Origin: Altererythrobacter sp. KTW20L
GTDB lineage: Bacteria > Pseudomonadota > Alphaproteobacteria > Sphingomonadales > Sphingomonadaceae
Direction: 5' to 3'
Assembly (NCBI RefSeq): GCF_023501975.1
Contig: NZ_JAMFLH010000006.1
Span: 1 to 64,000 of the forward strand
Length of the DNA stretch: 64,000 nucleotides
The position numbers and the translations under genes were made by a program. The notes under the pieces are model-generated. The model did no database searches. It saw nothing but the letters and a program-made list of their open reading frames with translations, and was not told the DNA's origin. Below are positions 44 to 53,320 of this stretch, in pieces (the first letter of the stretch is position 1; the number at the start of each line of letters is the position of its first letter).

Positions 44-69
44 GGAACTTGTGCACTGCAGCACGCGTT
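44..69 (+). promoter_or_regulatory. EcfG-type stress promoter (exact consensus)
   Basis: GGAAC at 44-48, a 17-nt spacer and CGTT at 66-69 match the consensus of alphaproteobacterial EcfG general-stress sigma factors. It lies about 100 nt upstream of the glycosyltransferase start at 170 and points towards it. An ecfG gene is in this window, so the cognate sigma factor is present. No expression data are available. Confidence 0.75.
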
Positions 70-169
70 ATTCGCGTGACTGCCACGTTTACTCCAAGAC
101 ACCAGATCCTGGCGCCAGTCGGGACCATCGGGCGCGGAGCAATTCTGCTGGCGAACTGGAGGCGCGAGC

Positions 170-2680
170 ATGAAGCACGATGCTGATGACAGGCATCTGC
201 GGGATTTCCCGCAGGACGAAGAAGTGTTTCACACGGCGCTCGGGCATCCCTTGCCGGGCATATTCGAGCCCCGTCTTGACCGCCATCTGGCCATGGTCGG
301 TTGCTTCCGCCCCCGCCAGTGCGGGATCGCCACTTTTACCGCCGATAGCTATGATCACCTGCTGGCCGCAGTGCCGGGCATGAAGGTCGATATTTATGCC
401 ATGCGCTCGGCTCCCGACCAGCCGGGTGACGCGGCTATGGCCATGGCCATCGACGAGCAGGATCGTGCCACTTACCGAACTGCGGCCGATGCGATCAATC
501 GCAGCGGTGCAGCGGCGGTCTGGCTGCAGCACGAATTCGGCATTTTCGGCGGCGAGGCCGGCGACCTGGTGCTCGACCTGGTGGATCGTGTGGCCGCGCC
601 CTTGATCGTCACCTTCCATACGATCCTCGCCCAGCCAAGCGCGCCGCAGCGCCGGGTGGTGAAGCGCCTGGTCGCCCGCGCCTCGCGGCTGGTGGTGATG
701 AGCGGTTTCGGGCGCGATACCCTGGTCAGCGTTTATGGGGCCGATCCTGCCCGCATCGCCCTGATCGAGCATGGGACGCCCGACCGGCCATATGTGGAAC
801 GCTCGCCGTTGCGGGACGGGCTCGGAATCGGCAACCGGCCGGTGCTATCCACCTTCGGGCTGATCGGACAGGGCAAGGGGCTGGAGGCAGCCATCCGCGC
901 CCTGCCGGCAGTCGCTGAACGCCACCCGGATGTGCTCTACCGCATTGTCGGAGCGACCCATCCCAATCTGATCGCGCATGAAGGCGAAGCCTATCGCCGG
1001 AGCCTGGAAGACCTGGCGGAAAGCCTGGGCGTGGCTGGCAACATTGCCTGGGAGAACCGCTTCCTCGACCTGCCCGAACTGCTCGACCAGATCGAACTTT
1101 GCGACATCTACCTCGCGCCGTATCCCAATCTGGCCCAGATCACCTCTGGCACCCTCGCCTATGCCGTTGCCTTGGGCCGGGCGGTGGTGTCCACGCCGTT
1201 CGTCCACGCGCGCGAATTGCTGGCCGATGGGGTGGGCGTGCTCCTGCCCGATACCGACAGCCAGGCGATTGCAGACGCAGTGCTGAAACTGCTGGCCGAT
1301 CCTGGCGAGTTGTCGGCTCTACGCCGACGGGCCTACCAGCGGGGCCGCCAGACCGCCTGGCCCACGGTGGCAGGCGAGTTTGCGCGGGTGCTGCGCGCAG
1401 CGGTCGGCGATGGCCGGCCTGTCCCCGCCACCCGCGCTGCGCCGCCGCTTCACGCGGTGCGGGCAATGAGCGACGCAGTGGGCATGCTGCAGCACGCCTG
1501 TGGCATCGTGCCCGACAGGGCGCACGGCTACTGCATCGATGACAACGCGCGGGCCCTGATGCTGGAGGTGGCCCTCGGTTCCAGCCGTCACAGCCCGAAT
1601 CATGGCCTGTCCTACGCCAGCTTTGTCCAGCACGCATGGAACCCGGACAAGCGCCGCTTCCGCAATTTCATGGGCTATGACCGCCGATGGCTTGAAGACG
1701 AAGGGTCCGAAGACAGCAACGGCCGCGCGCTTTGGGCACTGGGCTGGTGCGCTGGCCGGGCTTCATCTCCCGATCTGGCGGTGTGGGCGCTAGGCTGGTT
1801 TGACAGGACCCGCTTCATGGCGGCGGAATTCACCAGTCCGCGATCGATCGCTTTCGCGATGCTCGGCGCGGCCGAGGTGCTTACCCGTCACTCGGGCAAT
1901 GATGGCGCTCGCGCGATGTTGGCCGACGGATCTGACGCTTTGCTGGGCTGTTGGCACGCATCGTCCACAGAGGGCTGGCAATGGTTCGAAGCAGGCCTGG
2001 CCTATGACAACGCCCGCTTGCCGCAAGCCCTGATCCGGGTCGGCGAAGTGCTCGGCAAACCCGACTACACCCGAACAGGCCTAGCTGGGCTCGATTGGCT
2101 ATGCCGCCAGCAGACCGGCTCGCGCGGCCAGTTCAGGCCAGTGGGTTCCGAAGGCTTTGCCCTGGCAGGCGAGACCTTGCCGTTCGACCAGCAACCGCTG
2201 GAAGCATGGGCCACCATCGATGCCTGCGGTGCCGCATTCCGGGCGACCGAAGATGCCGTATGGAGCAGCCGGGCCGAAAGCGCCTGGCGCTGGTTCCATG
2301 GCGACAACGACCGCAGTCTAGCGCTGGTCGATGGAGCCACAGGGCTGTGCCGCGATGGCCTTACCCCGCACGGCGTCAACGCCAATACGGGCGCGGAATC
2401 GCTGCTGGCATTTCACCTTGCCTATGTCGAAATGAACGCCCTATTCTGGCCCCGAGGGATAGTTGGGGGCAGTGTCGGGGGCATTTCAGGAAAGGCCAGT
2501 TTCACCGATGCAGCTTTGCAGACCCGACCATTCACCCCTGCGATTGCTGGACGAGAAGCTGCGGGCCGATCCATCAAGGGTGGTGCTGCGGCCATTCCAC
2601 CTGGCTTGGCAGGAGAGCGTGGCCGAGATGTCCCGCGCACAGCAGCTGGTCGCCGATATTTCGGCTCTGAGCGAGGATGA
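170..2680 (+). CDS. GT4-type glycosyltransferase with C-terminal glycosidase-like domain
   Basis: The 836-residue product joins a GT-B (GT4-like) glycosyltransferase half (about residues 40-410; nucleotide-sugar side segment LSTFGLIGQGKGLEAAIRAL) to an alpha-helical, probably alpha/alpha-barrel half (about 430-770). The family usually transfers sugars in the cytoplasm; donor and acceptor cannot be read here. The ATG at 170 follows GGAGG at 158-162. Its neighbour is a GH130 phosphorylase gene, a recurrent pairing that suggests synthesis or turnover of a manno-oligosaccharide. The last 58 residues overlap the GH130 gene by 173 nt and look unlike a normal domain end, so the native stop may lie near 2460 and a frameshift is possible. 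An EcfG-type promoter precedes it. Confidence 0.8.
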   Translation: MKHDADDRHLRDFPQDEEVFHTALGHPLPGIFEPRLDRHLAMVGCFRPRQCGIATFTADSYDHLLAAVPGMKVDIYAMRSAPDQPGDAAMAMAIDEQDRATYRTAADAINRSGAAAVWLQHEFGIFGGEAGDLVLDLVDRVAAPLIVTFHTILAQPSAPQRRVVKRLVARASRLVVMSGFGRDTLVSVYGADPARIALIEHGTPDRPYVERSPLRDGLGIGNRPVLSTFGLIGQGKGLEAAIRALPAVAERHPDVLYRIVGATHPNLIAHEGEAYRRSLEDLAESLGVAGNIAWENRFLDLPELLDQIELCDIYLAPYPNLAQITSGTLAYAVALGRAVVSTPFVHARELLADGVGVLLPDTDSQAIADAVLKLLADPGELSALRRRAYQRGRQTAWPTVAGEFARVLRAAVGDGRPVPATRAAPPLHAVRAMSDAVGMLQHACGIVPDRAHGYCIDDNARALMLEVALGSSRHSPNHGLSYASFVQHAWNPDKRRFRNFMGYDRRWLEDEGSEDSNGRALWALGWCAGRASSPDLAVWALGWFDRTRFMAAEFTSPRSIAFAMLGAAEVLTRHSGNDGARAMLADGSDALLGCWHASSTEGWQWFEAGLAYDNARLPQALIRVGEVLGKPDYTRTGLAGLDWLCRQQTGSRGQFRPVGSEGFALAGETLPFDQQPLEAWATIDACGAAFRATEDAVWSSRAESAWRWFHGDNDRSLALVDGATGLCRDGLTPHGVNANTGAESLLAFHLAYVEMNALFWPRGIVGGSVGGISGKASFTDAALQTRPFTPAIAGREAAGRSIKGGAAAIPPGLAGERGRDVPRTAAGRRYFGSERG

Positions 2681-3812
2681 TGCTGAGGCAGAGCTTGGAC
2701 TGATCTGCAAGGATTTTGCCGATCGCCATTGGCAGATCGAGCGGATATTCGAAGCGCGCTTTGCGGAAATCGTCGAAGATACGGGCATTGATCCGTCCGG
2801 TTTTTCGCCTGCCAAGCAGCAGCTTGTGGGCGCATATTTTTGCCATGAGTATTCCTATGCCGCTGCCGCGCTGATGAACCCCAGCGTGGTGCCACATCCG
2901 GACCAGAGCGGCATCGGCCCGCAGATGCGCTTCCTCATGTCGATGCGCGCGGTGGGTGAGGGGCACATCAGTTCGGTCGCTTTTCGCGAGGGTTTCATTG
3001 GGCCGGACGGCGATCTCAAGTTGTGGCCCCAGTCCGGTCCGGCCATGGCTGCCGTGGCGGACGACCGCCACCACCTCGGCCCTGACGATGCGGTCATGGT
3101 CCATCGCAATCCCGACAGTGCGATCTCCAGCACGGTACTGTTCCCGGTGACCGAAGCCCAGCGCAACGGGCTGGAAGACCTGCGGTTGGTCCAGTTTACC
3201 GATGATGACGGCTCGACCGAATTTATCGGCACCTATACCGCCTATTCAGGCCATGCGATCCGGTCGGAATTGCTGCGTACGCGAGACTTCAACAGCTTTT
3301 CGCTGGAGCCGTTGAAAGGTCGCGCCGCACGGAACAAGGGCATGGCGCTGTTCCCGCGCAAGGTGGGGGGGAAATACATGATGGTGGCCCGGCAAGACGG
3401 CAAGAACGTCACCCTGCTGTCGTCCGATGATCTCACCCATTGGGACGACGAGGGCGAGCCGCTGCTGCGTCCGCGCTTCCCGTGGGAGCTCGTGCAGATG
3501 GGCAATTGCGGCAGTCCGATAGAATGCGACGAGGGATGGATTTTGCTCACCCACGGAGTGGGAGCCATGCGCAAGTACAGCCTTGGTGCCGCCCTGCTTG
3601 ACCGCGATGATCCCTCGAAAGTGCTGGGGCGCACTGTTTGCCCGATCCTGGCCGCTGCTGACAGCGACCGGGAGGGCTATGTCCCGAATGTGGTCTATAC
3701 CTGCGGGGCAATGCTAGTCAGGGACGAACTGTTCATCCCTTACGGCATTTCCGACAGCGCCATCGGCTTTGCCACGACCCGGGTGGAGGACCTGCTGCGC
3801 CAGATGGTGTGA
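2508..3812 (+). CDS. GH130 family beta-mannoside phosphorylase-like protein
   Basis: The 434-residue product has the GH130 five-bladed propeller signature, including segments GLEDLRLVQF, RNKGMALFPR and the late HGVGAMRKYSLGAALLD. GH130 enzymes phosphorolyse or hydrolyse beta-mannosides. I chose ATG 2508, which follows an AGGAAAGG ribosome site at 2488-2495 inside the upstream gene; a TTG at 2463 would add 15 residues. No signal peptide is seen, so it is probably cytoplasmic. It is co-directional with and overlaps the glycosyltransferase gene, so the two are almost certainly co-transcribed and translationally linked. The substrate cannot be set from sequence. A second GH130 gene lies at 8144-9262. 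Confidence 0.85.
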   Translation: MQLCRPDHSPLRLLDEKLRADPSRVVLRPFHLAWQESVAEMSRAQQLVADISALSEDDAEAELGLICKDFADRHWQIERIFEARFAEIVEDTGIDPSGFSPAKQQLVGAYFCHEYSYAAAALMNPSVVPHPDQSGIGPQMRFLMSMRAVGEGHISSVAFREGFIGPDGDLKLWPQSGPAMAAVADDRHHLGPDDAVMVHRNPDSAISSTVLFPVTEAQRNGLEDLRLVQFTDDDGSTEFIGTYTAYSGHAIRSELLRTRDFNSFSLEPLKGRAARNKGMALFPRKVGGKYMMVARQDGKNVTLLSSDDLTHWDDEGEPLLRPRFPWELVQMGNCGSPIECDEGWILLTHGVGAMRKYSLGAALLDRDDPSKVLGRTVCPILAAADSDREGYVPNVVYTCGAMLVRDELFIPYGISDSAIGFATTRVEDLLRQMV

Positions 3813-3818
3813 GCGGCC

Positions 3819-4073: not shown

Positions 4074-4101
4074 GGACCAATCTCCTTCGTGCAACAGGCT
4101 C

Positions 4102-4881
4102 TTACCCGCCAGCACCGCTGTGCAGGTAACGAGGGGAAAAGCCTGCAATCCGATGGAGGCAGGCAATATCGGCGATCCGCACGCGGCGGCCGTGGCGTGA
4201 CAGGGCACCGCGTTCGACCAGAGTCTTGACCGTGCGGTTGATATGCACCGGGGTAAGGCCAAGGAGATCGGCCAGCTGCTCCTGGGTCATCGGGATCTCG
4301 ATCGCTTCGTCCAGGCCGCGCACGGTAAGGCGCATGCGATAGTCGAATTCGCAAAGGAAATGGGCCAGGCGCTCAAGCGCGTTGCGCCGACCGATGTTGA
4401 GTTGCCACTCCCGCCCGATTGAGGCTTCCACCAGGATATCGACCAGAACTGACCGTGCGATGTTCGACCGCGCCGCAACGAGTTGTTCCAGCGCGGCGAG
4501 TGGGAGGACAGCCAGATCGACCGCGGTCAGGGCCTGCAGGCTGTGATCGGCGGTCGCAAGATAGAGCGACTGGAAATCGAGCGGGTCGCCGGGCAGCTTG
4601 ACCGAAACGATCTGCCGCCCGCCGTCCGCCACATGCTTTTGTCGAAAGGCGATGCCCGACAGCAGGATGGGGCACTGGGTAGCCTGGTCCCCCTCGCGCA
4701 GGATGTAGTCATTGGGGGAAAGGCGCCTCATCTGGTGCGGCAACGAAGCCAACAGACGCTGGTCCTCGGTCGTCAGCATGGAATGACTGCGCAACTTGCG
4801 CAGGAAGATGTCGAACACGGATGGATTGTCCGCCCGTGCATATTCCACTTTCCGCACACTTGTAAGGTTCGATCCGTTCAT
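4102..4881 (-). CDS. Crp/Fnr-family transcriptional regulator
   Basis: A 259-residue regulator with an N-terminal cyclic-nucleotide-binding-like beta-roll (REGDQATQCPILLSGIAF, then LPGDPLDFQSLYLA) and a C-terminal winged helix (MTQEQLADLLGLTPVHINRT). The roll lacks the cysteine cluster of oxygen-sensing FNR, so the signal is unknown. I chose ATG 4881; in-frame extension to 5028 looks non-coding and runs through the promoter. An exact EcfG-type promoter lies 68 nt upstream, which suggests this regulator relays the general stress signal. It is divergent from another Crp/Fnr gene at 5226. Confidence 0.85.
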   Translation of the reverse strand: MNGSNLTSVRKVEYARADNPSVFDIFLRKLRSHSMLTTEDQRLLASLPHQMRRLSPNDYILREGDQATQCPILLSGIAFRQKHVADGGRQIVSVKLPGDPLDFQSLYLATADHSLQALTAVDLAVLPLAALEQLVAARSNIARSVLVDILVEASIGREWQLNIGRRNALERLAHFLCEFDYRMRLTVRGLDEAIEIPMTQEQLADLLGLTPVHINRTVKTLVERGALSRHGRRVRIADIACLHRIAGFSPRYLHSGAGG

Positions 4882-4948: not shown

Positions 4949-4973
4949 AACGGTGTCAGTCGACGCCGGTTCC
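4949..4973 (-). promoter_or_regulatory. EcfG-type stress promoter (exact consensus)
   Basis: On the minus strand GGAAC (4973-4969), 16 nt, then CGTT (4952-4949) match the EcfG consensus exactly. The site lies 68 nt upstream of the Crp/Fnr start at 4881 and points to it. It sits in the 344-nt divergent region between two Crp/Fnr genes; I saw no equivalent site for the plus-strand gene. Confidence 0.75.
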
Positions 4974-8143: not shown

Positions 8144-9262
8144 TCAGATTGAGAAAGTGGACTTGGGGATATGGGTGATCCGGCAGGCAAGGTCCGCCTC
8201 GCCCGATGCCACCACAAAGTAGTCGCCCGCATCGACCATGCCCGTGGTGAACACCACGTCGCGGACATACATCTGATCTTCCAGCGGGCGGGTCAGGTCC
8301 GGGGCAGCTTCGAGGAGAGGCTGATGCTCGGTATGGATCACCTTCGATGGATCGGTACGGTCGAGCAGTGACCAGTAGGTGCGATAGATGCCGACAACTT
8401 CCTTCGGTTCCACTCCGTGCCACAGGGTCAGCCAGCCATCATCGGTCAGGATGGGCGGTGTACCGCCACCCATCCGCGCCGTGGCAACCGTGTTGACATG
8501 GGCGCGGATGCCGGGCCTCGCGCAAGGCTTCCAGTGCAGCGCGTCGGGCGACGAGGCGAGATTGATCGAAGGCCCGGCGCGCCAGTCGGACCCGGGCGGG
8601 TAGGCAAAGTAGAGATCGCCCAGGGGCCGGGTCTGGGCCCAGTAATGCCCGTCGATCAGGCCTTCGAAGATCAGCATGTCCTTGTTCTGGTGGTCCAGCA
8701 CCATATCCACCAGGTGCCAGTCGAGACCATTGTAGGAGGCATAGAGGACAGTCGAATGGCGTTCGGGGCTGACTGAACAGGTGGTCATCAGCCAGCGGTC
8801 TTCCACCTTGCTGATCCGCGCATCCTCCACCCCGTACATCTGGAAATCGGCCTGGGGGGAAATAGCGCAATCGTAGTGCACCTCTACAACTTCGAGTCCG
8901 TCAGGCGACAGTTCCACCGGCAGCAGCCATGACAATGACGTGAGCGCCACGGCGCTCCATGCACCGCTGCGGACCAGGAACTTGCGCGGATCGGACATAT
9001 CGCACTGCTCGATCGGCCAAGCATCGACGACGTAGCCGCCATCGCTCCAGCGGATCGCGTGGACGTGGCCATCTGTAACCGGATACCGCAGCGCCTCGGC
9101 GATCCGCACCATCATCAACAGGTTGCCGTTGGGAAGGCGTGTGAGGCCGGGATTGAAGGCCCCCAGCACATAGGTTTCGGCAGCAAAGTGCCCGTCCAGC
9201 GGTGAGCGTGTCCGATCGACGTCGGCGGGGCCGAAAACCAGGTGGTCAACCGGACAAGGCAT
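8144..9262 (-). CDS. GH130 family glycosidase/phosphorylase-like protein
   Basis: A 372-residue second GH130-type propeller protein: FNPGLTRLPNGNLLMMVRIA, MYGVEDARISKVEDRWLMT, NKDMLIFEGLIDGHYWAQTR and WHGVEPKEVVGIYRTYWSLL are characteristic. The E-D in GVEDARI is the conserved catalytic area of the family. It diverges from the 2508-3812 copy and belongs to a different subgroup, so the two may act on different linkages. ATG 9262 was chosen because homology starts there and the promoter at 9317-9342 lies 55 nt upstream; a longer reading frame to 9445 would swallow it. It is the first gene of the GH130-SRPBCC-ADH run. Confidence 0.85.
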   Translation of the reverse strand: MPCPVDHLVFGPADVDRTRSPLDGHFAAETYVLGAFNPGLTRLPNGNLLMMVRIAEALRYPVTDGHVHAIRWSDGGYVVDAWPIEQCDMSDPRKFLVRSGAWSAVALTSLSWLLPVELSPDGLEVVEVHYDCAISPQADFQMYGVEDARISKVEDRWLMTTCSVSPERHSTVLYASYNGLDWHLVDMVLDHQNKDMLIFEGLIDGHYWAQTRPLGDLYFAYPPGSDWRAGPSINLASSPDALHWKPCARPGIRAHVNTVATARMGGGTPPILTDDGWLTLWHGVEPKEVVGIYRTYWSLLDRTDPSKVIHTEHQPLLEAAPDLTRPLEDQMYVRDVVFTTGMVDAGDYFVVASGEADLACRITHIPKSTFSI

Positions 9263-9316: not shown

Positions 9317-9342
9317 AACGGCGAGTGTCGCAATCGGGTTCC
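9317..9342 (-). promoter_or_regulatory. EcfG-type stress promoter (exact consensus)
   Basis: Minus strand: GGAAC (9342-9338), 17 nt, CGTT (9320-9317). It lies 55 nt upstream of the GH130 start at 9262, in the correct orientation. The divergent sensor kinase at 9526 has no matching site on the plus strand. Confidence 0.75.
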
Positions 9343-20180: not shown

Positions 20181-20230
20181 GTTCCTTTAGTGCCTGACAG
20201 GATTCCTGCCCTTGCAATGGCGTGGCGCGC

Positions 20231-20255
20231 AACCAATGTCACGCTTCGATGTTCC
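20231..20255 (-). promoter_or_regulatory. Possible EcfG-type promoter (GGTT -10)
   Basis: Minus strand: GGAAC (20255-20251), 16 nt, GGTT (20234-20231), 51 nt upstream of glmM. It differs from consensus in one base of the -10 element. glmM is a housekeeping gene and must also have another promoter, so treat this as a weak candidate. Confidence 0.3.
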
Positions 20256-20347
20256 GGCAGGCGCGCAAATCCGGCACCGATGCGGTGCCTGTGCGTTGGC
20301 GGGACATGGGATCCGTTTACCGCTCACCAGATTGAAGGAATTGTCCA

Positions 20348-20959
20348 ATGGCTTTCGAACTTTTGCCGCTGCCCTACGATAGCGAAGCGTTGGCGCCTGC
20401 CATCAGCGCCGAAACGCTGGGCTACCACCACGGCAAGCACCACAAGGCCTATATCGACAAGACCAATGCCGCCGTGACCGGGACCGACCTTGCAGGCAAG
20501 AGCCTGGAAGAGGTGATCGCCGCCGCGCGCGGAACGAACCAGGGCCTGTTCAACAATGCCGCTCAGAGCTGGAACCACGGGTTCTACTGGCACTCGCTGG
20601 CGCCTTCGACCAGCGGCCCCTCGGGCGACCTGGCCGACAAGATCGACGAGGCTTTCGGTTCGCTCGATGACTTCGCTACCAAGCTTAAGGACCGGGGCGC
20701 GGGCCACTTTGCCAGCGGCTGGGTATGGCTGGCCGAGAAGGACGGCAAGCTGTCGATCGAGGAAACCCACGATGGGGACACGCTGGTGGACCAGGGCTTC
20801 AACCCGCTGCTCACCGTGGACGTGTGGGAGCATGCCTATTACCTCGATCACCAGAATGCCCGGCCGAACTACCTGGCCGCCGTGATCGATGGCCACCTGA
20901 ACTGGGACTTCGCCGCCGACAACCTGGCGCGCGGCACGGCCTGGACCTATCCGGCCTGA
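20348..20959 (+). CDS. sodB: Iron superoxide dismutase
   Basis: A 203-residue Fe/Mn-family superoxide dismutase. Metal ligands sit in GYHHGKHHKAYIDKTN (His), WNHGFYWHSL (His) and DVWEHAYYLDHQN (Asp and His). The glutamine in NNAAQSWNH is the position used by iron enzymes, so I call it Fe-type. It lacks a signal peptide and is cytosolic. ATG 20348 follows GAAGGAA. A strong terminator follows at 20979-21012. Confidence 0.95.
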   Translation: MAFELLPLPYDSEALAPAISAETLGYHHGKHHKAYIDKTNAAVTGTDLAGKSLEEVIAAARGTNQGLFNNAAQSWNHGFYWHSLAPSTSGPSGDLADKIDEAFGSLDDFATKLKDRGAGHFASGWVWLAEKDGKLSIEETHDGDTLVDQGFNPLLTVDVWEHAYYLDHQNARPNYLAAVIDGHLNWDFAADNLARGTAWTYPA

Positions 20960-22296: not shown

Positions 22297-22959
22297 TCAG
22301 CGCAGGTGCGTCGTTATGCCGTCACCTGCGGCGACCATGTCGAGTTCTTCCAGGATTGCCCTGTGGGCAGAAGGGTCGCTCAGCGAACGATCCGGCACGG
22401 TCCCGTCCTCGATCATGCCGGCCAGCGTGGCCCGGGCACGGCCCACGCGGCTCTTGATCGTGCCCACGGCACAGCCGCAGATTTCTGCCGCTTCCTCGTA
22501 GGAAAATCCGCCTGCACCCACCAGCAGCAGCGCCTCGCGCCGTTCCGGGGGAAGGGTCAACAAGGCACGGTGGAGGTCGGACAGGTGGATGGGTTCTTCC
22601 TGTCCCGCCGGAGCGACCAGAATGCGTTCGGCCACGGTTTCGTCATACTCGCCGCGGAAGCGGTTGCGGCGCATGTCGGTGAGGAACACGTTGCGCAGGA
22701 TCACGAAGGTCCAGGCGCGCATCGAGGTGCCGGGTTCGAAGCGTTCCTGGGCGGCCCAGGCCTTGAGCATGGTTTCCTGAACCAGGTCGTCGGCCATGTC
22801 GGGCCTGCCGCACAGGCCGCGGGCGAAAGCACGCAGGTGCGGTAGCACGTCGGTCAGCTCGCGCTTGAACGCGCGCCTGTCATCGGCGCTGCGCGGCGGG
22901 CGTTCCACCGGCGCTTGCTCCGGCTTTCGCTCGGGCGCTGCTTGCGGTCCAATGCTCAT
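22297..22959 (-). CDS. ecfG: EcfG-type general stress response sigma factor
   Basis: A 220-residue ECF sigma factor. Region 2 (about 37-105) contains LRAFARGLCGRPDMADDLVQ and TSMRAWTFVILRNVFLTDMR; region 4 (about 125-180) contains ALLTLPPERREALLLVGAGG and GCAVGTIKSRVGRARATL. This is the EcfG (ECF15) group that drives the alphaproteobacterial general stress response. It directly overlaps nepR (ATGA), the standard anti-sigma partner order. An exact EcfG promoter upstream of nepR implies positive autoregulation. Its promoter motif recurs through the window. Confidence 0.93.
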   Translation of the reverse strand: MSIGPQAAPERKPEQAPVERPPRSADDRRAFKRELTDVLPHLRAFARGLCGRPDMADDLVQETMLKAWAAQERFEPGTSMRAWTFVILRNVFLTDMRRNRFRGEYDETVAERILVAPAGQEEPIHLSDLHRALLTLPPERREALLLVGAGGFSYEEAAEICGCAVGTIKSRVGRARATLAGMIEDGTVPDRSLSDPSAHRAILEELDMVAAGDGITTHLR

Positions 22960-23150
22960 TTATCGTCGACTTCTTCGTCATCGAGGCTGGCGAGAAGCTT
23001 CAACATGTCGCTGGGCAACGGTTCGCTTACGACTGAATTGTAGATGTTGCGCAATCCGTTGGCCCAATCGGGTTGTGGCACAGGCTTTACGGCCCGGGCT
23101 CCTGCCTTGCCGGAAGCTGCCCCGCTCGTCGGTTTGTGATTTTCGGTCAT
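22956..23150 (-). CDS. nepR: NepR anti-sigma factor
   Basis: A 64-residue NepR protein. The family binds and inhibits EcfG until the response regulator PhyR, once phosphorylated, sequesters NepR. The conserved helix region is WANGLRNIYNSVVSEPLPSD, followed by MLKLLASLD. I used ATG 23150; ATG 23162 or 23192 would add 4 or 14 residues. It overlaps ecfG by 4 nt and is translationally coupled to it. phyR itself, often nearby in other genomes, is not in this window. Confidence 0.92.
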   Translation of the reverse strand: MTENHKPTSGAASGKAGARAVKPVPQPDWANGLRNIYNSVVSEPLPSDMLKLLASLDDEEVDDK

Positions 23151-23302
23151 GGTCTGGTGCATCAAAGTCCCGTCTTTATCCCCAAAGTGCAACTTGCCTG
23201 CGCAACGCTAATGCAGCAAGGCTTCACGTCCCGGTTACCCTTCCGCTGTTGCGGCCAGAATCTGTTCGCAGAACTGTTCGTCGAATCTATTAGTCAGGTA
23301 GG

Positions 23303-23327
23303 GGAACGAAAGACGCGCCATCCGGTT
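23303..23327 (+). promoter_or_regulatory. Overlapping EcfG-type promoter for the CHASE-HWE kinase (GGTT -10)
   Basis: Plus strand: GGAAC (23303-23307), 16 nt, GGTT (23324-23327), 45 nt upstream of the kinase start at 23373. It overlaps the nepR promoter almost base for base, because the -35 of each lies on the -10 of the other. One base differs from the usual CGTT. Confidence 0.55.
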
Positions 23328-23329
23328 CC
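23305..23329 (-). promoter_or_regulatory. EcfG-type promoter of nepR-ecfG (exact consensus)
   Basis: Minus strand: GGAAC (23329-23325), 16 nt, CGTT (23308-23305), pointing to nepR, with a leader of about 150 nt to ATG 23150. EcfG autoregulation through such a promoter is known in this sigma group. Confidence 0.85.
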
Positions 23330-23372: not shown

Positions 23373-25070
23373 TTGGACGGGCGTACCGGCAAGCGCAGCA
23401 AGGCTAACCGATGGCTCGTGAGCTATCCGCGTGGCTTGCCGGTGGGAATCTTCCTGCTGGTGGCCGCGATTACCGTGCTGTCCATCTTTGCCATCGAACG
23501 CAGCGAAACTCAGCGTGCCCAGACCCAGCTGTCAAGCCGCACCACAGCCATCGCTTCGGCTCTTGAACGCCGCGCCAACGCCAGCAGCGCCTATCTGCGC
23601 GCCGGCGCGGCCCTGTTGGCCTCGCTTGACGAAGTCCAGCCCGAGGAGTTCCGTCGTTTCGTATCCGAACTGAAGCTGGATGCCGACTACCGCGGGGCCG
23701 AAGGCGTGGGTTGGGCCATGGTGGTGCGGCCCAACCAGATTGCCGAATTCGAGGCGATCATGGCCAGGGGCGCTGCGATACCGGCCCAGCTCCACCCTCC
23801 CCCCAGTGGGGAGCAGGCCTATTCGGTGCCGGTCACCTATCTCCAGCCGGACACCGAACGTAACCGGCGAGCGCTGGGCTTCGACATGTTTTCCGAACCG
23901 GTACGACGGTTTGCCATGCTGGAAGCTGAACGCAGCGCCCGCCCGGTCGTCAGCGGCAGGGTGGTGCTGGCGCAGGAGCCGACGGGGGATAATCCCGGTT
24001 TCCTGATCTATATGCCGGTGTTCGAGGCCGCGCCCGGTGGCAGGCGGCTGCGCGGCTATATCTACAGCCCGTTCAACGCCTCGGACTTTCTCGCCAGTGC
24101 GCTCGCGATCGAAGACAGCGGGGAGTACGGCGTCAGCTTCTACGACCGCTCGGTGAGCGAAGAAAACTTGATGGCCAGCACATTGGCCACACCCGAGGCG
24201 CGGGCCGACCAGCACGGCGTGACCGTGGCCATCGCCAATTCACCATTCGTGCTGGAAGTCAGCCGCGCGCCGGGTGGCGCATTGTCCGGCCTGTCGATGG
24301 CCACGCTGATCTTCGGCCTGCTGGTGGCCAGCCTGCTGATGCTGTTGGTCCGCATGCTGACCCAGCAGGCGATCGAGGACGAGGCCAGCCTTATATGGTT
24401 CGAGGAGCAGGCCTCGATCCGCAATTCGCTGACGCGCGAGTTGAACCACCGGGTCAAGAACACGCTCGCCAACGTGCTGTCGATCATCGCGCTGACCCGT
24501 CGGCGGGCCGACAGCGTGGACGAATTCGCCAATGGTCTCGACGGCCGGATTCGTGCCCTTTCGGCCACTCACGACCTGCTAACCCGGTCAGATTGGGGAA
24601 CCACCCCGGTGGCCGAGGTTATCCGTGCCGAACTGCGGCCCTATGCGCATGACAGCGACCGGGCAGTGGAAATGGGCGGCCCGCAGATCGAGCTTGCGCC
24701 CAACGATGCGCTGTCACTGGGCCTGGCGGTGCATGAGTTGGCGACCAATGCCGCCAAGTATGGTGCGCTTAGCCAGCCGGGCGGCAAGGTCAGCGTGCTG
24801 TGGTCGCTCGCTGCCCCTGAACTGGTGCGAGTCGAGTGGGTCGAACGGGGCGGGCCGCCAGTGCCGGCACAGCGGGGCCGCGGGTTCGGTACCGATCTGA
24901 TCGAGCGGATCGTGGCCCACGAATTGCGCAATCCGGTCCAGCTCGATTTTGATCCCGAAGGTGTGCGCTGCGTACTGATGATCCCCGTGCGCCAACCGAC
25001 CGAGTTTTCCATACGCGCGGCCCGCGCTCAGGCGCAGGGACGCACGATCCTCTCCGACCCGGCCAAGTGA
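23373..25070 (+). CDS. CHASE-domain HWE/HisKA_2 sensor histidine kinase
   Basis: A 565-residue membrane kinase: TM1 (GIFLLVAAITVLSIFAIE, about 25-43), periplasmic CHASE domain (about 75-290), TM2 (ATLIFGLLVASLLMLLVRML, about 308-328), HisKA_2/HWE dimerisation region with His359 in RELNHRVKN, and HATPase (LAVHELATNAAKYGALS; GRGFGTDLIERIV). HWE kinases with the HRxxN motif commonly phosphorylate PhyR or related regulators of the general stress response. Divergent position next to nepR-ecfG and an overlapping promoter make a PhyK-like role likely, but this is inferred. TTG 23373 follows GGAGAGAG. Confidence 0.9.
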   Translation: MDGRTGKRSKANRWLVSYPRGLPVGIFLLVAAITVLSIFAIERSETQRAQTQLSSRTTAIASALERRANASSAYLRAGAALLASLDEVQPEEFRRFVSELKLDADYRGAEGVGWAMVVRPNQIAEFEAIMARGAAIPAQLHPPPSGEQAYSVPVTYLQPDTERNRRALGFDMFSEPVRRFAMLEAERSARPVVSGRVVLAQEPTGDNPGFLIYMPVFEAAPGGRRLRGYIYSPFNASDFLASALAIEDSGEYGVSFYDRSVSEENLMASTLATPEARADQHGVTVAIANSPFVLEVSRAPGGALSGLSMATLIFGLLVASLLMLLVRMLTQQAIEDEASLIWFEEQASIRNSLTRELNHRVKNTLANVLSIIALTRRRADSVDEFANGLDGRIRALSATHDLLTRSDWGTTPVAEVIRAELRPYAHDSDRAVEMGGPQIELAPNDALSLGLAVHELATNAAKYGALSQPGGKVSVLWSLAAPELVRVEWVERGGPPVPAQRGRGFGTDLIERIVAHELRNPVQLDFDPEGVRCVLMIPVRQPTEFSIRAARAQAQGRTILSDPAK

Positions 25071-42832: not shown

Positions 42833-45085
<2,253 letters not shown>

Positions 45086-45225
45086 GGCTGGATCCTCGGG
45101 TGCTGGGGGAAGCTCTTCAGACTGAACCGTCCGACCGCCGGGAAGTTGCAGTCCCAGAGAAAAAAAGCGCCACTGATCGCCAGGTTGGGGTTTGGTGTGC
45201 ATGTGCCCGGGATGCGTTGCTGTGC

Positions 45226-45582: not shown

Positions 45583-45584
45583 CG

Positions 45585-48192: not shown

Positions 48193-48579
48193 TCAGATCG
48201 TATCGACGGCCATCGCCAGTAGCTTCCGCACCTCGCCTGCCACAGAAGTCAATTCAGCGTTCTTGATCGCCTGCATCGATTCCACCGGGTCGATGGCGCT
48301 GACCTCGACGCCGCCCTCGACTTCCCGGAGGATGACGTTGCATGGCAGCATTGCGCCAACCCGCGGCTCGATACCGATCGCCTGATGCGCCATCTTTGGA
48401 TTGCAAGCGCCGAGGATGCGGTAGGCAGGCATCTCGACATCCAGCTTCTTTTTCATCGTCGCTTTGACGTCGATCTCTGTCAGGATGCCGAAGCCGTGGT
48501 CCGCGAGAGCCTTGCGAGTGCGGGCGTCCACATCGTCGATAGCCGCGTCGGAGATTATGCGATTGATAGTGTAGGTCAC
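48193..48579 (-). CDS. DUF302 protein
   Basis: A 128-residue DUF302 protein: TEIDVKATMKKKLDVEMPAY, ILGACNPKMAHQAIGIEPRV, and LPCNVILREVEGGVEVSAID are typical of the family, which is soluble and of unknown function (some members bind haem or small ligands). The start is GTG 48579, placed by AAGGA 6 nt upstream; the frame extends further but without a ribosome site. It is divergent from the CheB-CheR hybrid, with an EcfG-like site (TGTT -10) in the shared region. Confidence 0.85.
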   Translation of the reverse strand: MTYTINRIISDAAIDDVDARTRKALADHGFGILTEIDVKATMKKKLDVEMPAYRILGACNPKMAHQAIGIEPRVGAMLPCNVILREVEGGVEVSAIDPVESMQAIKNAELTSVAGEVRKLLAMAVDTI

Positions 48580-48684
48580 AGCGGATCCTTTTACCAAATT
48601 CCGAACACCATTGATCGAGGCTGGGGCTACCGGATCCGAACGCGCAACGGCCAAGATATCGGAGGCCGACCAAGGTCCAGCTAA

Positions 48685-48710
48685 GGAACAAGTTTTGGGT
48701 TAAATTCGTT
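48685..48710 (+). promoter_or_regulatory. EcfG-type stress promoter of the CheB-CheR hybrid (exact consensus)
   Basis: Plus strand: GGAAC (48685-48689), 17 nt, CGTT (48707-48710), 144 nt upstream of the CheB-CheR-PAS-HWE gene and pointing to it. Confidence 0.72.
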
Positions 48711-48712
48711 CC
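48687..48712 (-). promoter_or_regulatory. Overlapping EcfG-like promoter for DUF302 (TGTT -10)
   Basis: Minus strand: GGAAC (48712-48708), 17 nt, TGTT (48690-48687), 108 nt upstream of the DUF302 start. It overlaps the plus-strand promoter in the same mirror arrangement as at nepR. One base departs from consensus. Confidence 0.45.
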
Positions 48713-48853
48713 ACGACATCGTCATTTCCCCCAAGGTTTTACCGCCTGATACAAAAAACGCCCCGGTCAATCGCGGCTCCATAACCACGGGCCTCGCTGG
48801 CTGGCGTCAGAAAAGTTCATTGCATCATTGGGCATCTGGGCCGATTGTAGACC

Positions 48854-51800
48854 ATGACCAAATCCCGCTCGACTTCTTCCAACAAGGTATCGTCGCGCTC
48901 GCCCCCGACGGAACGGCCGATTGCAGCTGACGGCATCACTGATAGCAGTTCATCAAGTAGTGCTCACCTCGTCGTCGGCATCGGCGCATCGGCCGGCGGT
49001 CTCGACGCATTCAGGGCATTCTTCTCCGAGATGCCCGTCGACAGCGGCATGGCCTATGTCCTGGTCCAGCATCTGGATCCCGATTATAACAGCGCGTTGG
49101 CCGAAATCATAAGCGAATGCACCGAGATGCCGGTGGTGAAAGCCGTTGACGGAACTGTCGCTGCGCCAAACACGGTTGCAGTGATCCCGCAAAATGCAAT
49201 TCTTAGGATCGAGGGCGGCGTGTTGCGCGTGGCTATGCCGGAGACCCCAACAGCACGGCGGTCGTCGATCGATACGTTCTTGGTGTCATTGGCGGAGGAT
49301 CAGGGCGCGAACGCTGTCGGGATCATCCTCTCGGGATATGGCAGCGACGGAACGATCGGGATTGAGGCGGTCAAGGAAGCCGGCGGCCTTACCCTGAGCG
49401 AAGCCGCGTTCGATCATCGCGCCAAATTCGGGATGCCGCAAAGCGCGACAGTCGGCGGTTTTGTCGATTATGTCCTCCAGCCCCATGAAATGCCTGCGCG
49501 CCTCCTCGAATACCGCGACTTCAAATCCAGAGAGCCTGACTACGAGGATCCCCTCAATGTGGAACCTGATCTCGCCAAATCTCTGGTGACCATTACCGCT
49601 GTGCTCAACAGCCGTCTGGGCCGCGATTTCGGACAATATAAATCCAGCACGCTTTCGCGCCGCGTCCGTCGACGGATGCAAGTGCTCCATATCGATGACC
49701 CCCGCGACTATATCGAGCAGCTGCGCAAGCTGCCGAGTGAGCCAGAGCTGCTGTTTCGGGAAATCCTGATCGGCGTCACGCGGTTCTTTCGCGACCCAGC
49801 AATGTTTGAAACGCTGGCCAAAACCGTCGTGCCGGAGATTGTCGCCGCTGGGGGGCCTGACGAGCCAATACGAATATGGGTGGCCGGATGCGCACGAGGC
49901 GAGGAAGCATATTCGCTCGCCATCCTGTTCAAAGAAGCTTTGACCAAAGCGGAGTCACCGCGACGCATCACGATCTTCGCTACCGATATAGACGACCTTG
50001 CCATCACGGTCGCACGGACCGGTCTCTATAGTGCCGATATCGAAGCAGACCTTACGAGCGAACGTTTGACTCAACACTTCATAAAGGAAGGTCAGCGCTA
50101 CCGCATTGCCAAACACATTCGTGATATGTGCGTCTTCTCCACTCACGATCTTGTCAAGGATCCGCCGTTCTCGAAGCTCGACATGGTGACGTGCCGTAAT
50201 TTGCTTATATATTTTGAAGCGCCCTTACAAAAGCGCGTTATTTCAACCTTCCACTACGGCATAAAGGCAGGCGGTTTCTTGTGGCTCGGACCCTCGGAAA
50301 CCATAGCCGCAAGTGGTCGCCTGTTTCTTACCTTCGACAAGCGCAGCCGCATCTTCAGACGACTGGATGTGGTGCCTGAAATCCCTCGAACGACGTCCGG
50401 CCGCCGAGCGGGCGCCGTCACCCCCGTCCAGCGAAACGTTGGTGCAGATAGTCTGGACGCCCAGGCCAACCGGATGGTTGCGCAATACGCGCCTGCCTAC
50501 ATAGTCTTTGACAGCCAGCATGAAATCCAACGCTTCTCCGGGCCGGTCGCAAAATTCATGGAACCGATGAGCGGCGGTGCCAGTCTGAATGTTTTTCGGA
50601 TGCTTCACGCGCAACTGCGTCCGCCAGTCCGTAACCTGATCCGCAAAGCGCTAGAAGGTCAAGGACCCGTTCAAGAGACTGTTACATTCCGGGTCTCAGA
50701 CCAGAGCCACACGATAAATCTCATCGCCCAGCCCCTGACGGAGACGGCGGCTGATCAAATTTCAATATTGCTGGTCTTCCAGGAGCTCTTCACGGATGCC
50801 ACAGTAAGCTTTCTCAAAAGCCCCGATGATGACACTCCTTCTGTCGACCTCGCACACGGCGAACTGATCGCGACGCGCGAGAAATTGCAGACGATAACCG
50901 AGGAACTGGAGACGGCGAACGAGGAGCTTCAAAGCTCCAATGAGGAATTCCAATCGGTAAACGAGGAACTACATTCTACTGTCGAAGAGCTTGAGACATC
51001 AAAGGAGGAATTACAGTCGATCAACGAAGAGCTCCAGACTGTTAATGCCGAGCTTAACAACCGGGCAGATAGTCTTGTCAGATCGAACAGCGATCTAGCC
51101 AACCTGTTCGATAGTACCTCGATTGCGACGTTGTTTCTCGATAACGGATCCCATATCCGCCGGTTTACCCCCGCGATCACCGAAATATTCGACATTCGTG
51201 AAGGCGACGAAGGCCGCCTCATCAGCAATTTCTCATCTCGCCTTGCAGGTTCAGCACTGACCCGTGACATCGCAACGGTGTTGCGCGATCTGGGCTCGCT
51301 TGAACGTGAAACAGATTCCGAAGACGGCGAGGCTACCTATCTGGTTCGGGTCAAGCCCTACCGCGACCTCAACAATGTCATCGACGGGGTCGTCATCACG
51401 CTCATCGATATCTCTGAACGAAAGAAGCTGGAGCGTGACCATGCCCACCTGGCGGCTATCGTCACGTCGTCGGAAGACGCGATAATCAGCCACGATCTGG
51501 AGGGCATGATTACCAGCTGGAATGCCGGGGCAGAGAAGATCTACGGATACACGGCAATCGAAATGATTGGTCAGCCGATGGCGACCTTGCTGGACGAAGC
51601 CCAATTTGACGAATGGCCTGGCAATCTGGCCCGCCTGCGTCGAGGCGAGCCGGTTACGGATATCGACATTAGCAGGGTAACGAAAGGCGACCGGGTAATT
51701 TATGTCTCCCTAACCATTTCCCCGATGAGAGACGCGAAGGGTTCCATTATTGGAGCTTCCGCAGTCGCCCGTGACATCGCGCAGCGCAAACTGTCTGAAG

Positions 51801-52432
51801 AGCGCACGCTAATGCTGATGGCCGAGCTTGATCACAGGGTGAAGAACATAATCGCTGTTGTTGCTTCGGTGGTCAATCAGTCGCTCAAAGGGGCTGGCAC
51901 GGCCGATGCAGCGCGAGCAGAGATCGAGGGGCGCATTCAAGCGATCTCGCGAGCGCATAATCTACTTAAGGAAAATGGGGGCCTGGGAGGTTCTCTGCGT
52001 GATCTCGTAGAGACCGAGCTCAGTCCTTATGAGCAGAAGAGCAACGTGAGCAAGTCAGGCGATGACGTCGTGCTCTCATCGCGAGCGAACCTGAACATTG
52101 GCCTGGCCATCCACGAATTGGCGACCAACTCGGCCAAATACGGCGCCCTTTCAACGGACGCGGGCCATCTTGATGTGACTTGGCAGGTTAAGGGGATAAG
52201 CGGCGAGCAGACACTTGAGATCTCGTGGCTGGAAACCGCCGGGCCGCCGGTTGTTGAACCTCTCCGGCGGGGTTTCGGAACCAAGCTCATCGAGCAGAGT
52301 CTGATGCGTGGCCTGAAGGCCAAAGTGATCCGTGAATTTCCCGAGGACGGAGTTCGATGCCATATTTCGATCCCGTTTACCCAAAACATCGGTCGTATTC
52401 GCTCGGAAGCCGGGCCGGATAGGGCTTCATAA
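48854..52432 (+). CDS. CheB-CheR-PAS-HWE kinase hybrid
   Basis: A 1192-residue hybrid. Order: CheB methylesterase (about 30-215; Ser in GIGASAGGLDAF, His in VQHLDPDYN, Asp in GYGSDGTIGI), CheR methyltransferase (about 220-480; IWVAGCARGEEAYSLAILFK, DMVTCRNLLIYF), PAS-like part, a long coiled coil (about 665-740, repeated EEL heptads), two PAS domains (about 745-855 and 870-985; ISHDLEGMITSWNAGAEKIY) and an HWE kinase (His994 in AELDHRVKN; HATPase LAIHELATNSAKYGALS). It has no receiver and lies outside any chemotaxis operon, so it probably integrates signals into the stress network. An exact EcfG promoter lies upstream. Confidence 0.9.
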   Translation: MTKSRSTSSNKVSSRSPPTERPIAADGITDSSSSSSAHLVVGIGASAGGLDAFRAFFSEMPVDSGMAYVLVQHLDPDYNSALAEIISECTEMPVVKAVDGTVAAPNTVAVIPQNAILRIEGGVLRVAMPETPTARRSSIDTFLVSLAEDQGANAVGIILSGYGSDGTIGIEAVKEAGGLTLSEAAFDHRAKFGMPQSATVGGFVDYVLQPHEMPARLLEYRDFKSREPDYEDPLNVEPDLAKSLVTITAVLNSRLGRDFGQYKSSTLSRRVRRRMQVLHIDDPRDYIEQLRKLPSEPELLFREILIGVTRFFRDPAMFETLAKTVVPEIVAAGGPDEPIRIWVAGCARGEEAYSLAILFKEALTKAESPRRITIFATDIDDLAITVARTGLYSADIEADLTSERLTQHFIKEGQRYRIAKHIRDMCVFSTHDLVKDPPFSKLDMVTCRNLLIYFEAPLQKRVISTFHYGIKAGGFLWLGPSETIAASGRLFLTFDKRSRIFRRLDVVPEIPRTTSGRRAGAVTPVQRNVGADSLDAQANRMVAQYAPAYIVFDSQHEIQRFSGPVAKFMEPMSGGASLNVFRMLHAQLRPPVRNLIRKALEGQGPVQETVTFRVSDQSHTINLIAQPLTETAADQISILLVFQELFTDATVSFLKSPDDDTPSVDLAHGELIATREKLQTITEELETANEELQSSNEEFQSVNEELHSTVEELETSKEELQSINEELQTVNAELNNRADSLVRSNSDLANLFDSTSIATLFLDNGSHIRRFTPAITEIFDIREGDEGRLISNFSSRLAGSALTRDIATVLRDLGSLERETDSEDGEATYLVRVKPYRDLNNVIDGVVITLIDISERKKLERDHAHLAAIVTSSEDAIISHDLEGMITSWNAGAEKIYGYTAIEMIGQPMATLLDEAQFDEWPGNLARLRRGEPVTDIDISRVTKGDRVIYVSLTISPMRDAKGSIIGASAVARDIAQRKLSEERTLMLMAELDHRVKNIIAVVASVVNQSLKGAGTADAARAEIEGRIQAISRAHNLLKENGGLGGSLRDLVETELSPYEQKSNVSKSGDDVVLSSRANLNIGLAIHELATNSAKYGALSTDAGHLDVTWQVKGISGEQTLEISWLETAGPPVVEPLRRGFGTKLIEQSLMRGLKAKVIREFPEDGVRCHISIPFTQNIGRIRSEAGPDRAS

Positions 52433-52495
52433 TGAACGGCCGCGCGGCGACTTCCTTCGCCGAGACCAGTCAAATGGCGCAAACGAGGTACGATT

Positions 52496-53077
52496 ATGGC
52501 CGACGATTTCCCCATTGTCTGCGTGGGTGGCTCCGCTGGCGGGCTTGACGCATATACGCGACTGCTCAAGCATTTGCCCGCTGATTTAGGCGTCGCAATT
52601 GTCATCGTGAATCACTTGCGAACGGTATCGACGAGGCTGCACGAGATACTCCCTCGCTTTACGCAAATGCCCGTGGAGTTGATCGAAGATCGGCTGGATG
52701 TTCGCCCCAATTGCGTGTTCATCATCCCGGAGAAACGCGATCTTCACGTGGTGGATGGGGAGTTTCGCCTTAGGCCGATATCAAAGCCCTGGGGGTGGCC
52801 TGACGTGATTACCGTCTTCCTGCGCTCCCTGACCGAGAACTGGTCCGGCCAACTGATCGCAGTCATTGTGTCCGGTTATGATGGAGACGGCGCGGCAGCA
52901 CTGTGCGGCATCAAGGATGTCGGCGGGATTACCATAGCCCAGAAGCTCGACACGGCTGTTCAGCCCGACATGCCACAGAGTGCAATAGAGAGCGGTTGCG
53001 TCGATTTCATTCTTTCGCCAGAGGAAATTGCGCAGGAAATCCGGCGTATCGCATCACGAGAACATTCCACATCCTAG
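52496..53077 (+). CDS. Stand-alone CheB methylesterase domain protein
   Basis: A 193-residue CheB catalytic domain without the usual receiver: Ser in CVGGSAGGLDAYTR, His in VIVNHLRTVSTRLHEILPRF and Asp in SGYDGDGAAALCGI. It normally hydrolyses glutamate methyl esters or deamidates receptors. The gene begins 63 nt after the CheB-CheR hybrid and is probably co-transcribed, although the hybrid already holds a CheB domain. No chemoreceptor is in the window, so the target is unknown. Confidence 0.88.
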   Translation: MADDFPIVCVGGSAGGLDAYTRLLKHLPADLGVAIVIVNHLRTVSTRLHEILPRFTQMPVELIEDRLDVRPNCVFIIPEKRDLHVVDGEFRLRPISKPWGWPDVITVFLRSLTENWSGQLIAVIVSGYDGDGAAALCGIKDVGGITIAQKLDTAVQPDMPQSAIESGCVDFILSPEEIAQEIRRIASREHSTS

Positions 53078-53295
53078 TAATATCTGTCGGCGCAGAATGC
53101 CGGCAGTCTATTCCGCACGGTCCATTATCCAGTGGCGGCACTATCAACGGCCCGATGCGTTCACTCCTGTACAGTCTCTTTGTATTGGATAGGAAGCCTC
53201 ATGACCACGGAATCCTACTGAACTAGCGTTGGATTTGCCGCTGACTTGCATCTTGACGCTGGCTACAACGAGGCGGCCAATCTCCGCCAGGGTCG

Positions 53296-53320
53296 GGAAC
53301 GAACGCAAATCGAGCCCGTT
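53296..53320 (+). promoter_or_regulatory. EcfG-type stress promoter of the two-partner secretion operon (exact consensus)
   Basis: GGAAC (53296-53300), 16 nt, CGTT (53317-53320), 162 nt upstream of tpsB, in a 404-nt intergenic region (53078-53481). The rest of that region holds no supported gene; a 105-codon minus-strand frame is not convincing. Confidence 0.72.

What the first reader, a model, noticed from the sequence alone, without database searches (positions are those of the whole stretch)
44..53320. A general stress response (EcfG) regulon clustered around its own sigma factor
Seen in sequence: six exact GGAAC-N16/17-CGTT motifs, all intergenic and correctly oriented, precede the GT/GH130 pair (44-69), a Crp/Fnr gene (4949-4973), the GH130-SRPBCC-ADH operon (9317-9342), nepR-ecfG (23305-23329), the CheB-CheR-PAS-HWE gene (48685-48710) and the two-partner secretion operon (53296-53320). 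Nine fixed bases, two spacers and two strands predict about one chance hit in 64 kb at even base composition, and far fewer in promoter positions. Established: this is the EcfG consensus, and NepR/EcfG are encoded here. Inference: the genes form a stress regulon that groups glycan turnover, Crp-type relays, sensing and surface protein export. phyR is absent from the window.
Basis: partly seen in the sequence, partly recalled or inferred. Interest (0 to 1): 0.85.

Follow-up and report, generated by a model that had tools for sequence, protein, structure and literature searches.

The report
Stress-response regulon with two-faced sigma promoter
This stretch of a bacterial chromosome carries the master switch of the cell's general stress response, with several nearby genes bearing that switch's own promoter, and the switch's promoter looks readable in both directions so that it would also turn on a neighbouring sensor gene.

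Summary
The six motifs are real and exactly placed: 6 found, 0.9 expected, none of 100 shuffles reached 6. All six are intergenic and face a gene. The genome holds 40 hits; 31 lie outside called genes. NepR and EcfG are present; phyR lies on the same contig, 22 kb past the window, under its own motif. The regulon reading is well supported: published EcfG regulons list many of the same gene families. Clustering holds in this genome (scan P 0.0003) but not as a genus rule: in 16 congeners the ecfG-phyR interval has no excess of non-core motifs (9 against 7.8 expected).

The same DNA reads GGAAC-N16-GGTT toward a divergent CHASE-HWE kinase. The two bases this needs (CC after CGTT) follow 57 of 75 related ecfG sites but 4 of 46 phyR sites, although spacers are only 39% alike (26% by chance). 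I read this as a bidirectional EcfG promoter; there are no transcript data. Superoxide dismutase beside ecfG also has an EcfG-type site in 54 of 63 relatives.

The parts
44..69 (+). EcfG-type promoter motif (N17) of the GT/GH130 pair
   Evidence: strict motif upstream of GT in 6 of 30 related loci
170..2680 (+). glycosyltransferase, long form
   Evidence: PF13692, PF00534; match at E<=1e-60 in 113 of 396 genomes of the order
2580..3812 (+). GH130-family protein
   Evidence: PF04041; start from own caller
4949..4973 (-). EcfG-type motif (N16) upstream of a Crp/Fnr-type regulator
4102..4881 (-). Crp/Fnr-type regulator
   Evidence: PF13545, PF00027; start from own caller
9317..9342 (-). EcfG-type motif (N17) of the GH130-SRPBCC-ADH operon
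8144..9262 (-). second GH130-family protein
   Evidence: PF04041
7351..8022 (-). SRPBCC/polyketide cyclase-like protein
   Evidence: PF03364
6105..7322 (-). zinc-dependent alcohol dehydrogenase
   Evidence: PF08240, PF00107
12220..16631 (+). topoisomerase IB, Ku and LigD genes; no strict or relaxed motif found upstream
20229..20255 (.). relaxed two-faced site between glmM (-) and superoxide dismutase (+): GCAAC-N16-TGTT / GGAAC-N16-GGTT; weak
20273..20297 (+). degenerate GGCAC-N16-CGTT at the place where 54 of 63 relatives have an EcfG-type site; read by eye
20348..20959 (+). Fe/Mn superoxide dismutase
   Evidence: PF02777, PF00081
22297..22959 (-). ecfG sigma factor
   Evidence: 80 related loci
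22956..23192 (-). nepR anti-sigma factor
   Evidence: PF18557
23305..23329 (-). EcfG motif (N16, CGTT) toward nepR-ecfG
23303..23327 (+). second face of the same site (GGAAC-N16-GGTT) toward the kinase
23373..25070 (+). CHASE-HWE histidine kinase, HRxxN motif, ATPase boxes intact by eye
   Evidence: PF03924, PF07536; sequence
45125..45149 (-). weak EcfG-like site (GCAAC-N16-GGTT) 40 bp upstream of catalase
42833..45085 (-). catalase, long form
   Evidence: PF00199, PF18011
48685..48710 (+). EcfG-type motif (N17) toward the CheB-CheR-PAS-HWE gene
48687..48712 (-). second face (GGAAC-N17-TGTT) toward the DUF302 gene; weak
48854..52432 (+). CheB-CheR-PAS-HWE kinase fusion
48193..48654 (-). DUF302 protein
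   Evidence: PF03625
53296..53320 (+). EcfG-type motif (N16) upstream of two-partner secretion genes
53482..57640 (+). two-partner secretion pair: ShlB/FhaC-type transporter and TPS-domain exoprotein
   Evidence: PF03865, PF05860

Best explanation
The window is the EcfG side of an alphaproteobacterial general stress response locus in an Erythrobacteraceae-like genome. Shown by sequence: nepR-ecfG, phyR 63 kb away on the same contig, and EcfG-type promoters in front of the core genes and of several accessory genes. Inferred mechanism, from the established pathway: HWE kinases sense stress and phosphorylate PhyR, PhyR~P takes NepR off EcfG, and EcfG-RNA polymerase fires these promoters. The nepR-ecfG promoter is two-faced: one 27-bp stretch reads GGAACC-N16-CGTT toward nepR-ecfG and GGAAC-N16-GGTT toward a divergent membrane HWE kinase, so EcfG would raise both itself with its anti-sigma and a likely input kinase. 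The other targets (glycan enzymes, Crp-type regulator, ADH, secretion pair, CheB-CheR kinase) are largely accessory genes wired in by their own EcfG sites; a block of them is shared with other genomes.
For: Six exact sites against 0.9 expected; 31 of 40 genome hits outside called genes; in 127 stretches (2.33 Mb) 209 of 236 strict motifs lie in intergenic gaps against 10 of 55 for the reversed pattern. ecfG site in 75 of 80 related loci. Two faces: CC after CGTT in 57 of 75 ecfG sites (52 of 69 distinct ones) against 4 of 46 phyR sites in the same loci (Fisher 9e-14, not corrected for kinship); in 16 congeners 16 of 16 ecfG, 0 of 16 phyR, 0 of 25 other sites (at least two of the 16 are also among the 80). 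Spacers of the 57 share 39% on average (26% by chance) and 52 are distinct. A kinase homologue lies on the other strand in 71 of 75 loci, two by partial matches. Strict two-faced pattern: 70 in divergent gaps, 2 in tandem gaps, while one-way motifs are 107 and 94; nearly all of the 70 are the ecfG site. GGTT as -10: among the commoner variants in S. granuli (PMC7083833, passage), and the EcfG consensus is given as GAAC-N16,17-C/GGTT in PMC4814048 (passage). The S. melonis EcfG list holds Crp-type, Ku, GT, glycosidase, CO-dehydrogenase-type, topoisomerase IB, catalase and Zn-ADH genes (PMC6599016, outline and passages).
Against: No transcript or binding data. Outside the ecfG locus two-faced sites (looser form) show no clear excess: 13 in divergent and 12 in tandem gaps; whole-genome counts of the palindrome are below the control in 34 of 40 genus genomes (own genome 9 against 7). 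CC could serve ecfG transcription itself: one of four loci without a kinase hit (L114) has CC. Eighteen ecfG loci lack CC and show no other reverse site. GGAACC, half of the symmetry, is also common at phyR sites. The nearest CheB-CheR relative has no strict motif and at E<=1e-200 the gene is in 4 of 298 family genomes, own included; secretion relatives are at most 33% identical. Ku-LigD has no motif here. In S. melonis the Zn-ADH promoter is called a putative indirect target and the catalase motif scores below the authors' cut-off.
Confidence: 0.67

Rival explanations
1. Ordinary one-way EcfG promoters: the CC after the -10 of the ecfG site is a strength or start-site feature of nepR-ecfG, and the kinase has a different promoter.
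For: The reverse -10 is GGTT rather than CGTT; GGAACC is also common at phyR sites, so half of the symmetry comes free; CC also occurs in L114, where no kinase hit was found.
Against: CC absent at 42 of 46 phyR sites and at all 41 phyR and other sites of 16 congeners; divergent kinase in 71 of 75 loci; an HWE kinase next to phyR2 is reported as directly GSR-regulated in S. granuli (PMC7083833, passage).
Confidence: 0.25
2. The clustering is chance: a few EcfG sites happen to lie near the core locus.
For: Without the core sites, a scan simulation gives P 0.11 for five and 0.015 for six of 27 in 86 kb; congener intervals show no excess.
Against: With core sites the scan P is 0.0003; several neighbours belong to families listed in EcfG regulons.
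Confidence: 0.35
3. The accessory genes came in as a pre-wired stress block shared between genomes, rather than being captured by the host regulon one by one.
For: Two genomes of another genus of the family (G140, G312) share GT, both GH130, SRPBCC and ADH at 60-84% identity within 12-14 kb, G140 with the catalase too, with EcfG-type sites by the relaxed pattern; a conjugative Novosphingobium plasmid carries SRPBCC-ADH and GT-GH130 within 12 kb.
Against: No strict motif in those two blocks, and only one on the plasmid stretch, at the start of a DUF4142 gene; no mobility gene among the window proteins scanned by Pfam (not every ORF was scanned) and no tRNA gene.
Confidence: 0.5

Closest known systems
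PhyR-NepR-EcfG general stress response of Alphaproteobacteria (S. melonis Fr1, S. granuli TFA)
   Same: nepR-ecfG operon with an EcfG-type promoter, phyR with one too, HWE kinases, GGAAC-N16/17-CGTT motif, and many of the same target families.
   Different: phyR is 63 kb from ecfG with other genes between; the ecfG site also faces a kinase with intact-looking ATPase boxes, whereas S. melonis has PhyP/PhyT with a degenerated ATPase domain at its phyR locus (PMC5898713, passage).
Pseudo-symmetrical bidirectional promoters of E. coli (PMC12825309, abstract)
   Same: One DNA stretch engages RNA polymerase in two orientations and serves divergent genes.
   Different: Here the elements fit an ECF sigma factor, the two sites overlap almost wholly with an offset of 2 bp, and the genes are a stress sigma factor and a likely input kinase.
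hrpL-hrpJ divergent region of Pseudomonas syringae (PMC5263251, passages)
   Same: An ECF sigma factor gene shares its upstream region with a divergent gene that the sigma factor drives.
   Different: There hrpL itself is sigma-54 dependent and the elements are adjacent, not one overlapping ECF site.

Membership tests
EcfG general stress response locus | EcfG sigma factor gene | tested here: met
   sigma r2/r4 and PhyR_sigma2 hits; 80 related loci at 57-89% identity
EcfG general stress response locus | nepR directly upstream of ecfG | tested here: met
   PF18557 at 22956-23192; the ORFs overlap by 4 bp
EcfG general stress response locus | phyR in the genome with an EcfG-type promoter | tested here: met
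   C32:85752, motif 85674-85698
EcfG general stress response locus | phyR at the same locus as ecfG (usual, not universal) | tested here: not met
   63 kb apart; both on one contig in 23 of 40 genus genomes, 22 of them 16-85 kb apart; 67 of 80 related loci have phyR in the fetched stretch
EcfG general stress response locus | EcfG-dependent transcription of the targets | not testable with these tools
   needs RNA data
Bidirectional promoter | overlapping promoter elements on both strands facing divergent genes | tested here: met
   23303-23329 and relatives
Bidirectional promoter | RNA made in both directions from the site | not testable with these tools
   no transcript data

The most novel reading that the evidence does not exclude
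In Erythrobacteraceae and Novosphingobium the general stress sigma factor and a divergent membrane HWE kinase are fired from one overlapping, nearly symmetrical EcfG promoter, so that a polymerase bound one way for the sigma/anti-sigma pair excludes one bound the other way for the kinase. This would tie the ratio of switch to sensor to one DNA element. The second face is missing mainly in loci named Qipengyuania (12 of the 18 sites without CC), a ready natural experiment.
Probability: 0.57. Interest if true: 0.62.

Novelty: new variant of a known kind. Interest (0 to 1): 0.48.

Why it matters
The regulon itself is a known kind. The two-faced ecfG promoter, if active, is a compact feedback design in which competing polymerase orientations could set the balance between a stress sigma factor and its sensor. 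Symmetrical promoters have been studied in E. coli (PMC12825309, abstract); three searches of an open-access library found no report of one for EcfG. It also warns that one-strand scans with a strict motif miss likely targets such as the kinase and superoxide dismutase.

Tried and rejected
Genus-wide clustering of the regulon between ecfG and phyR: rejected, 9 non-core motifs against 7.8 expected in 571 kb from 16 congeners; five of those nine sit at a like place some 3-4 kb before phyR, so truly accessory sites are fewer still. Two-faced EcfG sites as a general design: not supported outside the ecfG locus. Kinase as a PhyT-type degenerate protein: I judged by eye that the ATPase boxes are present; not tested by alignment or structure. 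Conservation of the secretion and CheB-CheR sites: no support. Loci without a divergent kinase in other families: searches gave 0 of 7 and 0 of 29 genomes; my E-value limit was probably too strict, and they show nothing. My gene caller is home-made and misses short genes; 'intergenic' depends on it. The relaxed patterns match often by chance, so single relaxed sites (catalase, glmM) weigh little. I did not look for Ku, LigD, topoisomerase or catalase across congeners; I know only that they are not near ecfG in 80 related loci.
Full report
OBSERVATION. The six GGAAC-N16/17-CGTT motifs are at the stated places and strands; 100 dinucleotide shuffles give a mean of 0.90 and at most 4. The window is the first 64 kb of contig C32 of a 3.09-Mb genome. 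EcfG relatives place it in or near Erythrobacteraceae: among the best of 80 loci are Erythrobacter UBA2510, Croceibacterium and Altericroceibacterium records at 85-89% identity.

GENOME TEST. The string itself is not over-represented: 40 hits against 85 for the reversed pattern. Its positions are not random: with a home-made gene caller, 9 of 40 lie inside genes and 24 of 40 within 350 bp upstream of a same-strand gene. In 127 stretches from this genome and relatives (2.33 Mb, 89% called coding or unassigned; some overlap in species), 209 of 236 strict hits are in intergenic gaps, against 10 of 55 for the reversed pattern. So the condition is not met.

GENES. Pfam supports a glycosyltransferase, two GH130 proteins, Crp/Fnr regulators, SRPBCC, ADH, topoisomerase IB and Ku, LigD, NepR, EcfG, a CHASE-HWE kinase and superoxide dismutase, catalase, a CheB-CheR-PAS-HWE fusion, DUF302 and a two-partner secretion pair. 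The S. melonis EcfG list (PMC6599016; I saw the abstract, headings that carry table rows, and passages) contains Crp-type, Ku, glycosyltransferase, glycosidase, CO-dehydrogenase-type, topoisomerase IB, catalase and Zn-ADH genes; the ADH is called a putative indirect target there. In S. granuli (PMC7083833, passages) nepR-ecfG, both phyR genes, an HWE kinase beside phyR2, two catalases and ku-ligD are listed as directly regulated; GCAAC is the second commonest -35, and TGTT, CATT and GGTT are the commonest -10 boxes after CGTT. PMC4814048 (passage) gives the consensus as GAAC-N16,17-C/GGTT.

PHYR AND THE SPLIT LOCUS. phyR lies at C32:85752 with a motif just upstream. Of 40 genus genomes, 23 have ecfG and phyR on one contig, own genome included: 22 at 16-85 kb and one at 638 kb (one of the 22, G392, has two ecfG-like genes and I took the longer). 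In 67 of 80 ecfG loci phyR lies inside the fetched stretch, mostly about 3 kb from ecfG. So the interval is widened in this genus. I fetched it for 16 of the 21 congeners with 16-85 kb (left out: four of 75-85 kb, and G392). The ecfG and phyR motifs are there in 16 of 16, a gene near phyR has one in 13 of 16, and only 9 other motifs occur against 7.8 expected from each genome's rate. Clustering of accessory targets is thus particular to this genome. Here 8 of 30 distinct non-coding sites fall in 86 kb (scan P 0.0003); without three core sites P is 0.015 for six or 0.11 for five.

TWO-FACED PROMOTER. The ecfG site reads GGAACC-N16-CGTT toward nepR-ecfG and, offset by 2 bp on the other strand, GGAAC-N16-GGTT toward the CHASE-HWE kinase. 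The reverse -35 needs CC after CGTT. Of 80 related loci 75 have the strict ecfG site; 57 of 75 carry CC (52 of 69 distinct site sequences); a kinase homologue lies on the other strand in 71 of 75, two by partial matches. The matched control in the same loci is phyR: CC in 4 of 46. In 16 congeners CC follows 16 of 16 ecfG sites, 0 of 16 phyR sites and 0 of 25 others (the 25 include two sites inside the ecfG gene). At least two of these 16 (G013, G018) are also among the 80 loci, so the sets are not independent. Spacers of the 57 sites share 39% on average against 26% by chance, and 52 are distinct; I infer that CC is held by selection. Fisher's test (9e-14) ignores kinship.

AGAINST IT. Eighteen ecfG sites lack CC and have no other reverse site in the stretch examined; 12 of the 18 are in loci named Qipengyuania, while one Qipengyuania locus (L083) keeps CC. 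L114 has CC but no kinase hit. GGAACC is common at phyR sites too, so only the CC half of the symmetry is special. The strict two-faced pattern is found 70 times in divergent gaps and twice in tandem gaps, but nearly all are this one locus: in the looser form 72 of 98 gap sites are the ecfG site, and the other 26 split 13 divergent, 12 tandem, 1 long gap. Whole-genome counts of the palindrome are below the control in 34 of 40 genus genomes. The second window case (48685/48687) is therefore weak. The kinase keeps an HRxxN motif and the N-box, WxE and G-box by eye, unlike PhyP/PhyT of S. melonis, described as having a degenerated ATPase domain (PMC5898713, passages and author summary).

OTHER SITES. 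Upstream of superoxide dismutase, next to ecfG, 54 of 63 relatives with a usable upstream region carry G(G/C)AAC-N16/17-NGTT, nearly all GCAAC-N16-CGTT about 70 bp from the start; the reversed pattern hits 0 of 64 on that strand and 2 of 64 on the other (64 includes the window). In this genome the matching place reads GGCAC-N16-CGTT (by eye) and a different relaxed site lies about 45 bp further out, so the local copy is uncertain. A relaxed site lies 40 bp before catalase. Ku-LigD has none.

ORIGIN OF THE ACCESSORY GENES. A strong GT match is absent from 24 congeners and present in one of 16 other genomes of the order; a wider draw finds it at E<=1e-60 in 113 of 396 genomes of the order, own included, and in 2 of 12 congeners drawn. 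Of 30 such loci examined, 6 have the strict motif just upstream of GT and 0 the reversed control, though over the whole loci the counts are 12 and 10. Two genomes of another genus hold GT, both GH130, SRPBCC and ADH at 60-84% identity in one block, one with the catalase, with relaxed EcfG-type sites but no strict ones. A conjugative Novosphingobium plasmid carries SRPBCC-ADH and GT-GH130 with one strict motif, at the start of a DUF4142 gene; two further plasmid stretches have GT-GH130 and no motif. I infer, with middling confidence, a shared stress block that joins EcfG regulons.

VERDICT. The finding is right in its observation and main reading, over-general about clustering, and incomplete about the promoter. 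Searches for a bidirectional promoter of EcfG or of an ECF sigma factor gave no matching report (open-access library only; of the five papers listed I looked into one, PMC5263251). That nepR-ecfG is most often divergent from phyR, both with EcfG promoters, is stated in PMC4814048 (passage).

Noticed in passing
G000:C31:18773-18925 (L117): A further ECF sigma factor whose PhyR_sigma2 hit scores slightly above EcfG's (49.3 against 47.3 bits), followed by a 232-aa protein that by eye could be an anti-sigma factor; no EcfG-type site before it.
   Followed up: partly
62010-62732, 62797-63432 and L172:885-1895 (contig 64384-65394): Possible anti-phage genes: a TIR protein like SpbK, and matches to candidate defence families PDC-S52 and PDC-S19, in a lower-GC stretch at the window's end.
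   Followed up: partly
29265-30674: Glucuronate isomerase (UxaC) appears split over two ORFs, 29265-29678 and 29730-30674: perhaps a broken gene or an assembly error.
   Followed up: no
G000:C12:144952-144979: A perfectly symmetrical EcfG site (GGAACG...CGTTCC) with strict hits on both strands, another strict hit 400 bp away and two more within 24 kb: a second small group of sites.
   Followed up: no
L279:7274-7300 and L280:8060-8086: An identical relaxed two-faced site in two genomes of another genus, between a Crp-type gene and catalase or GH130.
   Followed up: partly
35959-36810: A 283-aa ORF matching only the barrel end of a TonB-dependent receptor, possibly a remnant.
   Followed up: no
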